33,449 bases of DNA from Polymorphobacter sp. Lineage in GTDB: Bacteria; Pseudomonadota; Alphaproteobacteria; Sphingomonadales; Sphingomonadaceae. Below, in pieces: positions 14,927-17,719 of this stretch (its first letter is position 1; each line of letters starts with the position of its first letter). The position numbers and the translations under genes were made by a program. The stretch is from assembly GCF_025362435.1 (NCBI RefSeq), contig NZ_JANYGL010000088.1:1-33449 (forward strand), read 5' to 3'. Under the pieces are notes generated by a model, which saw nothing but the letters and a program-made list of their open reading frames with translations, was not told the origin of the DNA and ran no database searches.

Positions 14927-15307
14927 TCAGGCGCTTGCGCCGGGCCGGGCGTCGCGCTTTTCGACGATACGCGCCGACTTGCCCGAACGACCACGAAGGT
15001 AATAGAGCTTGGCGCGACGGACGACGCCACGACGGACGACTTCAATCGAATCGATGTTCGGCGAGTACAGCGGGAAGACGCGCTCGACGCCCTCGCCGAA
15101 GCTGATCTTGCGAACGGTGAAGCTGCTGCCCATCGCGCGATTGGCGCGGGCGATGCACACGCCTTCGTAGTTCTGGACGCGGCTGCGGTCGCCTTCGACG
15201 ACCTTGACCCCGACGCGCAGCGTATCGCCGGCGCGGAACAGGGGGATCTTCTTGGTCTCGAGGAACTTGGCAATCTGTTCCGCCTCGAGCGTCTGGATGA
15301 GATTCAT
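14927..15307 (-). CDS. rplS: 50S ribosomal protein L19
   Basis: L19 sits at the 30S-50S interface. The 126-aa protein has the expected N-terminus [15 protein letters not shown] and the family core [49 protein letters not shown] and [15 protein letters not shown]. The ATG at 15307 is chosen because it gives the family N-terminus and has a strong AAGGAG site nine bases upstream. One base separates it from the trmD stop. It is the last gene of the ffh-rpsP-rimM-vapBC-trmD-rplS block. Confidence 0.97.
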
Positions 15308-15308
15308 C

Positions 15309-16040
15309 TCATTCTCCTTCGTCATCTCGCGCGCCAGAGGGCGACCGACCCCGAACGCCACGATAGCGTTCCCACAGGTCCGGCCGCCTTAGCCGTGTGT
15401 CCTCTTCGGACCGCGCCTGCCGCCATGCGGCGACCTTCGCGTGATCCCCCGATCGCAAGACTTCGGGGATCGATTGCCCGTCCCACGTTGCGGGCCGGGT
15501 GTAGTGCGGGTATTCGAGGAGACCGCTTTCGAAGCTCTCGCTGTCCCCGCTCTGGCTCGCGCCCATTACGCCGGGAAGCAGCCGGATGCAAGCATCGAGC
15601 AGGACCAGCGCCGCGGGCTCGCCCCCTGACAGGACATAGTCGCCGATGCTGACCGGCTCGAGTGCGTCGGGGCCGGTGAACAATCGCTCGTCGAAGCCCT
15701 CGAAGCGCCCGCAGATCAGCCGGACGCCGGGACCGCGCGCAAGGTCGCGAATGCGCGACTGCGTGAGTGGCGGGCCGCGCGGCGACAGCGCGAGGGCCGG
15801 ACCGATGCCCCCGACGCCACGCAACGCCCCCGACACGATATCGGCGCGAAGGACCATGCCGGGACCGCCCCCCGCCGGAGTGTCGTCGACGGTGCGATGC
15901 TTGTCGGTGGTGAAGTCGCGAATGTTGCGCGCGTCGAGGCTCCAGATGCCCTCGGCCAGCGCGCGCCCAGCGAGGCTGTGCCCAAGCGGCCCGGGAAACA
16001 TCTCGGGGTATAGCGTGAGGACGGTAGCGGACCAAGTCAG
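15309..16040 (-). CDS. trmD: tRNA (guanine-N1)-methyltransferase TrmD, apparent CTG start
   Basis: TrmD methylates G37 of tRNAs to prevent +1 frameshifting and is usually essential. The SPOUT knot is visible: [27 protein letters not shown] and [16 protein letters not shown]-type motifs (here [16 protein letters not shown]). The first in-frame ATG is at 16001 ([10 protein letters not shown]), but that drops the conserved first strand. Reading upstream gives [16 protein letters not shown], which is family-like. No ATG, GTG or TTG occurs in frame before it. A CTG at 16040-16038 takes the position of the initiator Met and overlaps the vapC stop as CTGA. With it the protein is 243 aa, a normal length; without it, 230 aa. 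The start codon is an inference. Confidence 0.93.
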
Positions 16041-16423
16041 GGGAGGGTCCAGTTCTCGATCTTGAGATTGGGTATGTTGCTGAAGTCGGCCGTGTTCGCG
16101 GTGACCAGCGTCAGTCCTGACGACAGGGCGTGCGCGGCGATCAGGCGATCGAACTTAGCCCGCTTGAACGGCAGCGTGCCATAGACCTGCGCAGCGTCGT
16201 AGTCGAAGGGCAGCAGTTCCGCGATCTGCAACAGCCGCCCGAATTCGACCGCACGACGATGGTCGTGGCGTTCAATACCGGCCGCTAACTCTGCGAAGAC
16301 AATTGCCGAAATCGCCAATGAGCCGACTTCGATCTGCTCCACTCTCGCGCGCAGCGGCTCGATCGATGCGGCAAACATATGGATGCAGATGTTGGTGTCG
16401 AGCAGATATGCCAGATCAGCCAT
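16037..16423 (-). CDS. vapC: VapC-type PIN-domain ribonuclease toxin
   Basis: VapC toxins are Mg2+-dependent endoribonucleases that cut tRNA or rRNA when not bound by VapB. The 128-aa PIN domain has Asp9 in YLLDTNICI, Glu45 in FAELAAGIE, Asp92 in [11 protein letters not shown] and Asp113 in LVTANTADF, so the acidic site looks intact. Its ATG overlaps the vapB stop by 8 bp, as usual for these pairs. Its own stop overlaps the apparent trmD start. Base composition is somewhat lower in GC than the flanking ribosomal genes, which fits acquisition by transfer. Confidence 0.93.
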
Positions 16424-16682
16424 TGCGGTTCAGTAGATGCCATGGCAGATCGCGCTCTTCTAAAGTGCGCTCGTCTGGGGTCAGTTGCTTCAAGCCCGGA
16501 ATGGATCCCCAAATTCCTGTGAGGTCGATCTTCTTCGGCTTGGCGTTGGCCAACGATTCGACGATCCAGCGCCCCTGCTCCTCGCGGACCTCGACCGGCG
16601 TGCCGGGAACCGCGTTGAACGACGCGGGCAAGCGAACGGCCATCGAGTTGCCCGATTTGAACACCTTGGTCATCGCCATCAT
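16416..16682 (-). CDS. vapB: VapB-type (AbrB/SpoVT fold) antitoxin
   Basis: An 88-aa antitoxin with a swapped-hairpin AbrB DNA-binding N-terminus (MTKVFKSGNSMAVRLP, then VEVREEQGRWIVE). The C-terminal tail (LTPDERTLEERDLPWHLLN) should wrap the VapC active site. Three ATGs lie close together at 16682, 16679 and 16673. A GGAGG ends two bases before the first, so 16679 has better spacing. The gene begins 28 bp after the rimM stop. An AT-rich palindrome fills that gap and is a likely autoregulatory operator. Confidence 0.92.
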   Translation of the reverse strand: MMAMTKVFKSGNSMAVRLPASFNAVPGTPVEVREEQGRWIVESLANAKPKKIDLTGIWGSIPGLKQLTPDERTLEERDLPWHLLNRNG

Positions 16683-16689
16683 CGCCTCC

Positions 16690-16710
16690 GTATATACGGT
16701 AAGTATATAC
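16690..16710 (-). promoter_or_regulatory. Predicted VapB operator/promoter
   Basis: Two copies of the self-palindromic octamer GTATATAC (16690-16697 and 16703-16710) are separated by five bases. They sit between the last codon of rimM and the vapB start. Such AT-rich dyads next to a VapB start are typical autoregulatory sites. The TATATAC elements could also supply a -10 hexamer. They stand out sharply from the GC-rich surroundings. Confidence 0.7.
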
Positions 16711-17192
16711 TAATCGACGAAGGCCGCGTCTACCACTACCCGCTCGCCGATCTCCGGTACCGCCGTCGGGGTCAACGGAACCATGAAGGTCTTGCGGTCG
16801 GGCTTTTCAATTTCGAGGATGTCGCCGGCGCCGAAGTTTTCGACCGCAATGACAGTGCCAACGGCAGTGCCATCGGTGTCGACCACCGCCAGCCCGATCA
16901 AGTCGGCGTGGTAATACTCACCCTCGGCCAGCGGTGGCAGAGAGTCGCGTGGGACGGTCAGCACGGTGCCGCGCAGCGCCTCTGCGGCGTTGCGATCGGC
17001 GATCTCGGCGAAGCGCGCGATCGCGCCGCCCTTGTCGGGGCGAAGCGACTTGAGCGTCAGCGTCCGTCCGGCAGCGTCGAAGCTCTTGTATCGCTTCAAG
17101 CTGTCGGGGGTATCACCGAACAGCTTGAGGCGAACCTCGCCGCCGATGCCATGCGCTCCGGCAACGGCGGCGAGGGTGATCGTCGTGCTCAG
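16710..17192 (-). CDS. rimM: 16S rRNA processing protein RimM, apparent CTG start
   Basis: RimM binds the 30S head with protein S19 and helps mature the 3' part of 16S rRNA. The C-terminal PRC-barrel is visible ([20 protein letters not shown] and [16 protein letters not shown]). The first conventional start in frame is a TTG at 17099, which would give 129 aa and lose the hallmark N-terminus. Upstream the frame encodes [20 protein letters not shown], a clear family N-terminus. No ATG, GTG or TTG precedes it. A CTG at 17192-17190 occupies the expected Met position and overlaps the rpsP stop as CTGA, giving 160 aa, a normal length. Identity is firm; the start codon is inferred. Confidence 0.93.
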
Positions 17193-17719
17193 ACGGCGGG
17201 ACCGGCGGGCGAGGCGTCGGTCTCGGTCGCCGCGTCGACCGGGATCTCGACGTCGGAGGGTGCTTCGACCGGCTCGGCGGCTTCGGCGGGAACTTCGACT
17301 TCGGCAACGGGCTCCGGCTCAGCGGGCGTCGCGGCGGCGACCTTGGCGGCTTCGGCAGCCTCGGCGGTCGCTGCATCGAGCTCGGCCTGCTTGGCGGCAG
17401 CAGCGTCGGAACGCTCCTTCGCCTTGTCGCCGGGGACGCCCTTGTTCGGGTTCGAGCGGGCGGCCCGGGTGCGGATACCGGCGGCGTCGAGGAAGCGGGC
17501 GACCCGGTCTGACGGCTGCGCGCCGACCGACAGCCAGTGCGTCGCGCGCTCGCCGTCGAGCTTCACGCGCTCGGGGTTCTCCTTGTTGAGCAGCGGGTTG
17601 TACGTCCCGATCTTTTCGAGGAACTTGCCGTCGCGGGCGTTGCGGCTGTCCGTCACGACGATGCGGTAATAGGGCTTCTTCTTCATCCCGCCGCGAGCGA
17701 GCCTGATTGCGAGTGACAT
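17189..17719 (-). CDS. rpsP: 30S ribosomal protein S16 with long acidic tail
   Basis: S16 is a 30S assembly protein. The first 80 or so residues are the complete family core ([63 protein letters not shown]). The remaining 95 or so residues are a low-complexity Ala/Glu/Pro/Val extension rich in AEAAEAAK and PAEPEP-type repeats, bringing the protein to 176 aa. Tails are common on alphaproteobacterial S16, but this one is long. The ATG at 17719 follows AGGAAG. ffh lies 39 bp upstream on the same strand. Confidence 0.96.

What the first reader, a model, noticed from the sequence alone, without database searches (positions are those of the whole stretch)
16001..16040. trmD appears to start at CTG, overlapping the vapC stop as CTGA
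The conserved TrmD N-terminus ([13 protein letters not shown]) is encoded upstream of the first ATG. No ATG, GTG or TTG is found in frame before it. A CTG sits exactly where the initiator Met should be, and shares bases with the vapC TGA. No Shine-Dalgarno is visible. Translation of a usually essential enzyme would then depend on ribosomes finishing the toxin gene. This would make loss or early truncation of vapC costly: an addiction built into translational coupling rather than into toxin stability.
Basis: partly seen in the sequence, partly recalled or inferred. Interest (0 to 1): 0.8.

Follow-up and report, generated by a model that had tools for sequence, protein, structure and literature searches.

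The report
Toxin gene feeds translation of trmD
In this sphingomonad bacterium the gene for a usually essential tRNA-modifying enzyme has lost its normal start codon and begins at CTG inside the stop signal of a toxin gene, and comparison with relatives shows that this toxin has sat in front of the enzyme gene, usually sharing four bases with it, across much of the family.

Summary
On the minus strand vapC (16037-16423) ends CCC TGA, and the trmD frame has CTG at 16038-16040, overlapping as CTGA. No ATG, GTG or TTG lies in frame before the conserved TrmD N-terminus. The CTG aligns with the ATG of trmD in a same-genus species (94% identical protein) and with the ATG/GTG start of nearly all relatives examined. 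It is not a one-off. A vapBC module lies between rimM and trmD in 75 of 301 sampled genomes of the family. In 65 of 101 distinct loci vapC and trmD overlap by exactly four bases (ATGA 40, GTGA 18, TTGA 5, CTGA 2). Overlapped trmD genes have weaker start codons and fewer strong Shine-Dalgarno sites. rimM in the same operon also appears to start at CTG overlapping the rpsP stop, and a second species shares this. Best explanation: trmD is translated by termination-reinitiation from vapC, within a module headed by a conserved VapBC operator and a strong vapB ribosome site. Coupling is well supported by comparison but not by experiment. 'Addiction' is only partly supported: most relatives lack vapC, though none of 82 vapC-less loci keeps a broken copy before trmD.

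The parts
16038..16040 (-). CTG start codon of trmD, shares TG with the vapC TGA (CTGA overlap, 16037-16040)
   Evidence: aligns with ATG of G001 trmD
15309..16040 (-). trmD, tRNA (guanosine(37)-N1)-methyltransferase, 243 aa from the CTG
   Evidence: NF000648 275.7 bits (cut-off 220), TIGR00088 242 bits (cut-off 195); only copy in genome
15999..16001 (-). First canonical in-frame start (ATG), internal: would delete 13 conserved N-terminal residues
16037..16423 (-). vapC, PIN-domain toxin, 128 aa, with D9, E45, D92, D113 present
   Evidence: PF01850 58.9 bits; acids conserved across trmD-linked VapCs
16416..16682 (-). vapB antitoxin; overlaps vapC by 8 nt
   Evidence: weak NCBIfam VapB matches below cut-off; 4- or 8-nt overlaps usual in relatives
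16685..16689 (-). GGAGG, strong Shine-Dalgarno of vapB, presumed entry point for ribosomes that reach trmD
   Evidence: sequence
16690..16710 (-). GTATATAC-N5-GTATATAC, presumed VapBC operator; its first G is the last base of the rimM stop TAG
   Evidence: conserved before vapB across the family while the proteins diverge to about 45-60% identity
16048..16050 (-). GGA, weak Shine-Dalgarno-like triplet 7 nt before the CTG
   Evidence: aSD energy -3.0
16710..17192 (-). rimM; only plausible NTG start is CTG at 17190-17192, overlapping the rpsP stop as CTGA
   Evidence: same CTG in G001 (L003)
17189..17719 (-). rpsP (bS16), upstream gene of the operon
   Evidence: identity from operon order and sequence
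14927..15307 (-). rplS (bL19), downstream of trmD
   Evidence: identity from operon order and sequence

Best explanation
trmD is initiated at the CTG inside CTGA by ribosomes that have just terminated vapC (termination-reinitiation at a -4 overlap). The chain is: a strong GGAGG ribosome site at vapB, then vapB to vapC (8-nt overlap), then vapC to trmD (4-nt overlap). Shown here: the anatomy, the homology of the CTG with the ATG of relatives, and the conservation of the overlap across the family. Inferred: initiation at CTG by fMet-tRNA, dependence on vapC translation, and transcriptional control of trmD by VapBC through the GTATATAC operator in addition to the rpsP operon promoter. The likely history is a module held between rimM and trmD in sphingomonads, whose stop codon is supplied by trmD's own NTGA. 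The N is the free third base of the last vapC codon. Here it has become C (closest VapC relative: CCA TGA; window: CCC TGA), which is silent for vapC and turns the trmD start to CTG.
For: Exact alignment of CTG with ATG in G001 and with the start position of nearly all relatives, and no canonical start upstream. Purifying pattern in codons 2-13: 5 synonymous, 1 non-synonymous. 75 of 301 family genomes carry this VapC lineage between rimM and trmD; linked copies score 66-151 bits (window's own copy 271) and unlinked paralogues 63 or less. Linked VapCs fit one lineage. 65 of 101 distinct linked loci have exactly a 4-nt NTGA overlap: ATG 40, GTG 18, TTG 5, CTG 2. TTG/CTG starts: 5 of 52 overlapped versus 0 of 114 other trmD loci, Fisher P=0.0026; strong SD 7/52 versus 39/113, P=0.005 (not corrected for relatedness). 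In 401 genomes only G000 and G166 have CTG at this codon without an ATG next to it, and both are CTGA overlaps with vapC. rimM in the same operon has CTG in CTGA as its only NTG candidate, also in the separately assembled G001. NTGA is the commonest overlap in prokaryotes, and overlapped pairs tested elsewhere are translationally coupled (PMC12548453, PMC6728339).
Against: No expression data. CUG is the poorest of the four NTG starts (PMC11497404). The aSD energy distribution as a whole does not differ between overlapped and other loci (Mann-Whitney P=0.97); only strong sites are rarer. Loci are not phylogenetically independent. The window genome is a fragmented assembly (165 contigs), so the base itself cannot be checked against reads. 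G166 also has a TTG three codons upstream.
Confidence: 0.78

Rival explanations
1. The C at 16040 is an assembly or consensus error, or a rare variant; the true start is ATG or GTG overlapping as usual.
For: The assembly is fragmented and cannot be checked; a single base separates CCCTGA from the CCATGA of the closest VapC relative L026.
Against: A second CTGA case at the same codon (G166) and a CTG-started rimM in the same operon, shared with a separately assembled species, show that the lineage tolerates it. A random error at just this base should be much rarer than the 2 in 401 genomes that show it (inference).
Confidence: 0.1
2. TrmD is made as a VapC-TrmD fusion by -1 slippage: the P-site tRNA-Pro moves from CCC to CCC on C-CCC-TGA and then reads CTG ACT.
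For: The frame relation is -1 and the P-site codon can re-pair perfectly in the window sequence.
Against: The relation is forced by NTGA geometry; the last vapC codons of most relatives (such as CTA, CAA, CGA, CTG) cannot re-pair in the -1 frame, yet the overlap is kept. The base kept across loci is the first base of a start codon (A or G in 58 of 65 loci) although it is a free third base for vapC.
Confidence: 0.04
3. TrmD starts at the internal ATG (16001) and lacks the first 13 residues, or starts at another codon such as the upstream CTG at 16050-16052.
For: The internal ATG is the only canonical start.
Against: Matches to nearly all solved TrmD chains begin at query residues 3-7, so the first 13 residues cover a conserved part, which from general knowledge is the first strand of the SPOUT fold. 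Codons 2-13 are under purifying selection. The upstream CTG is a shadow of the VapC N-W codons.
Confidence: 0.04
4. Coupling is real but it is ordinary operon coupling with no addiction meaning: the module settled in an already coupled rimM-trmD junction and the CTG is near-neutral drift. (This competes with the addiction reading, not with the best explanation above.)
For: In vapC-less relatives rimM itself often overlaps trmD by 4 nt (seven at -4). Most overlapped relatives keep ATG or GTG. About 75% of sampled family genomes lack vapC here.
Against: No vapC remnant directly upstream of trmD in 82 vapC-less loci, as expected if broken vapC is costly. Weak starts occur only in the overlapped class.
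Confidence: 0.5

Closest known systems
-4 nt NTGA overlaps and translational coupling by termination-reinitiation (PMC6728339, PMC10666635, PMC12548453)
   Same: Stop and start share bases as NTGA; coupling is expected.
   Different: The start is CTG, the upstream gene is a toxin and the downstream gene is a usually essential enzyme.
Type II VapBC toxin-antitoxin modules of the tRNA(fMet)-specific VapC branch
   Same: PIN domain with four acids, antitoxin gene first and overlapping, palindromic operator; best solved relatives include tRNA(fMet)-specific VapC.
   Different: Fixed chromosomal position between rimM and trmD across a family; toxin stop fused to the start of a housekeeping gene; scores fall below the NCBIfam equivalog cut-offs.
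rpsP-rimM-trmD-rplS operon
   Same: Gene order ffh, rpsP, rimM, trmD, rplS is kept.
   Different: vapBC inserted between rimM and trmD; both rimM and trmD use CTG.
Bacterial CUG start codons (PMC11497404: 0.024% of bacterial initiation codons, 0.86% of AUG efficiency)
   Same: CTG serves as initiator.
   Different: Two in one operon, both inside CTGA overlaps, the rimM one shared between species.

Membership tests
TrmD (tRNA m1G37 methyltransferase) | Equivalog profile above curated cut-off | tested here: met
   275.7 bits versus 220, and 242 versus 195
TrmD (tRNA m1G37 methyltransferase) | Complete N-terminus, present only if CTG is the start | tested here: met
   Profile positions 3-4 reached at residues 5-6; alignment to G001
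VapBC type II toxin-antitoxin | PIN-domain toxin with the acidic active-site residues | tested here: met
   PF01850 58.9 bits; D9, E45, D92, D113
VapBC type II toxin-antitoxin | Antitoxin gene directly upstream, overlapping | tested here: met
   vapB 16416-16682, 8-nt overlap
VapBC type II toxin-antitoxin | VapB recognised by curated models | tested here: inconclusive
   NF047862 25 bits (cut-off 100), NF040493 23.6 (cut-off 60); no Pfam match
VapBC type II toxin-antitoxin | Palindromic operator before the antitoxin | tested here: met
   GTATATAC-N5-GTATATAC conserved before vapB; binding not tested
VapBC type II toxin-antitoxin | Toxin inhibits growth and antitoxin relieves it | not testable with these tools
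   needs expression
tRNA(fMet)-specific VapC | NCBIfam equivalog/subfamily cut-off | tested here: not met
   NF047863 91.5 bits (cut-off 140); NF010285 52.2 (cut-off 143)
tRNA(fMet)-specific VapC | Cleaves initiator tRNA in the anticodon stem-loop | not testable with these tools
   needs biochemistry
Translational coupling by termination-reinitiation | -4 nt NTGA overlap | tested here: met
   65 of 101 relatives
Translational coupling by termination-reinitiation | Downstream translation falls when upstream translation is cut short | not testable with these tools
   needs reporter fusions

The most novel reading that the evidence does not exclude
In sphingomonads VapBC has become a control module for TrmD: its operator and ribosome site set trmD transcription and translation, and VapC activity feeds back. 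If this VapC cleaves initiator tRNA like its enteric relatives, whose action stimulates initiation at elongator codons (Winther and Gerdes 2011, as cited in PMC3905216), a trmD starting at an elongator codon right after the toxin stop could keep or change its output when initiator tRNA is depleted. The toxin and the tRNA methyltransferase may also act on the same anticodon region.
Probability: 0.1. Interest if true: 0.88.

Novelty: new variant of a known kind. Interest (0 to 1): 0.62.

Why it matters
It is a natural test of whether a toxin-antitoxin module can be held in a chromosome by being wired into expression of a usually essential gene rather than by toxin stability. The family-wide set of ATGA, GTGA, TTGA and CTGA junctions at the same gene pair is a ready-made series for measuring how far termination-reinitiation relaxes start-codon choice. 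It also warns annotation: a caller limited to ATG, GTG and TTG would begin trmD 13 codons and rimM about 31 codons too late here. The full-text searches found no paper on vapBC between rimM and trmD, within that open-access library only.

Tried and rejected
Initiator tRNA: pattern and BLAST searches did not find it in the window genome or G001, so whether an unusual initiator tRNA relaxes CUG discrimination stays open; it may lie in unassembled or masked rRNA operons. Wider survey of missing canonical starts (714 kb of own genome against 400 kb of G001, 83 confident orthologues): conserved leaders and overlapping frames made the mechanical screen noisy. By my reading trmD was the only clear case in that filtered list; rimM was not kept by the filters and rests. 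L057 (Sphingomonas aurantiaca) has CTG at the same codon but lies inside a much longer open frame, so it was not counted. Two further CTG matches (G041, G176) are CTG ATG with the ATG as the likely start. Promoter scan found nothing convincing at vapB. Spearman correlation of TrmD and VapC identities is weak (0.16), so simple vertical descent of vapC alleles is not supported even though the site is shared.

Full report
Check of the observation. The window is the whole of one contig in a 165-contig genome of 2.9 Mb. On the minus strand the order is ffh, rpsP, rimM, vapB, vapC, trmD, rplS. vapC ends AAC TGG ACC CTC CCC TGA at 16037; the trmD frame reads CTG ACT TGG TCC GCT ACC GTC CTC ACG CTA TAC CCC GAG ATG TTT CCC GGG from 16040. 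The ATG at 16001 is the first canonical start, and 47 open codons before the LYPEMFPG motif hold none. Same-genus G001, whose TrmD is 94% identical, has ATG ACC TGG TCC GCC ACT at the same place. Codons 2-13 differ by five synonymous changes and one conservative replacement, so the stretch before the ATG is protein-coding. Known TrmD profiles reach position 3 or 4 at residues 5 or 6 when CTG is residue 1.

Is it a one-off? No. A VapC search of 301 family genomes gave 75 with a VapC of 66 bits or more, and inspection places them between rimM and trmD (a few with extra genes in between); paralogues elsewhere score 63 bits or less. In 385 genomes drawn from the class, the ten matches outside the family carry no trmD or rimM nearby. 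A tree of 134 VapCs needs four changes of the linked/unlinked label, and the well-supported branches force only one. Some of the four involve loci with extra genes or a second copy. Among 101 distinct linked loci, 65 overlap trmD by exactly four bases: ATGA 40, GTGA 18, TTGA 5, CTGA 2. The shared N is the free third base of the last vapC codon, so its bias to A and G reflects selection for trmD initiation. The window's closest VapC relative (L026, 62%) ends CCA TGA; the window has CCC TGA, the same proline, so one silent change in vapC would have turned ATG into CTG (inference).

Strength of the start. In deduplicated loci, TTG or CTG starts occur in 5 of 52 overlapped trmD genes and in 0 of 114 others (P=0.0026); non-ATG starts in 19 of 52 versus 15 of 114 (P=0.0009); strong anti-SD pairing in 7 of 52 versus 39 of 113 (P=0.005), though the whole energy distributions do not differ. 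These tests ignore relatedness; the TTG cases lie in four different genera. In 401 genomes only the window genome and G166 have CTG at this codon without an adjacent ATG, and both are CTGA junctions with vapC. G166 also has TTG three codons upstream, so it is a weaker case. The literature gives CUG as 0.024% of bacterial starts and 0.86% as efficient as AUG (PMC11497404); NTGA is the commonest gene overlap, and overlapped pairs tested elsewhere depend on upstream translation (PMC12548453, PMC6728339).

A second CTG start in the same operon. rimM has no ATG, GTG or TTG before its conserved AAVAGAHG motif. The only NTG candidate is CTG at 17190-17192, overlapping the rpsP stop as CTGA, seven codons before the motif, where several relatives have ATG. 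G001, a separate assembly in three contigs, has the same CTG with a synonymous change in the next codon (AGC/AGT). This argues against sequencing error and for tolerance of CTG at -4 overlaps in this genus.

Module anatomy. A palindromic pair GTATATAC-N5-GTATATAC runs straight out of the rimM stop codon and up to the vapB Shine-Dalgarno GGAGG; it is conserved before vapB across the family while VapB and VapC diverge to roughly 45-60% identity. vapB and vapC overlap by 4 or 8 nt in most loci. The acidic residues of the PIN active site are kept in nearly all linked VapCs. VapC resembles tRNA(fMet)-specific VapCs but falls below the curated cut-offs. Between the window and G001, RimM and TrmD are 93-94% identical but VapB 57% and VapC 43%, so the module's alleles seem to be exchanged in place.

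Mechanism. Shown: the overlap, its conservation, the absence of another start, and selection on the N-terminus. Inferred: ribosomes enter at vapB, pass through vapC, terminate at TGA and reinitiate at CTG; VapBC autoregulation also affects trmD. The addiction reading is possible but not shown. About three quarters of sampled family genomes lack vapC here; among vapC-less loci, rimM is joined to trmD (seven at -4 nt) or other genes intervene. Consistent with a cost of breaking vapC, none of 82 vapC-less loci keeps a recognisable remnant before trmD; rapid removal of dead genes would give the same picture.

Rivals. Sequencing error is the main one and is lowered by the second CTG in the operon and the G166 case. 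A -1 slip on C-CCC-TGA could make a fusion, but the slippery codon is not conserved. An internal start at Met14 would remove a conserved part of the protein. None can be excluded without reads, peptides or reporters.

Verdict. A real and conserved arrangement whose mechanism type (NTGA coupling) is known, with an unusual start codon and an unusual partner. Full-text searches found no description of vapBC between rimM and trmD, limited to the open-access library.

Noticed in passing
window 17189-17192 (minus strand); L003: rimM also appears to start at CTG overlapping the rpsP stop as CTGA, in the window and in G001; several other family rimM genes lack an obvious canonical start near the conserved N-terminus.
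   Followed up: partly
window 16690-16710; upstream of vapB in most linked loci: GTATATAC-N5-GTATATAC operator-like palindrome conserved across the family and merged with the rimM stop codon.
   Followed up: partly
window 16037-16682 versus L003; L135 versus L139: vapBC alleles differ strongly (VapC 43%) between genomes whose flanking TrmD is 94-99% identical, as if the module were swapped in place by recombination in the flanks.
   Followed up: partly
rimM-trmD interval in many loci: The rimM-trmD junction holds various other insertions of 0.3-2.5 kb in relatives without vapC, so it looks like an insertion hotspot.
   Followed up: no
L057, about 3000: Sphingomonas aurantiaca trmD lies in one long open frame with an upstream gene and has CTG at the start position: possible in-frame fusion.
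   Followed up: no
L269, about 1500: A 26-base match to the 3' half of an initiator tRNA lies in an apparently coding stretch of the window genome, like an attachment-site remnant.
   Followed up: no
L113: Sphingomonas pituitosa carries two vapC copies in tandem upstream of trmD (47% identical), the nearer one overlapping trmD as GTGA.
   Followed up: no
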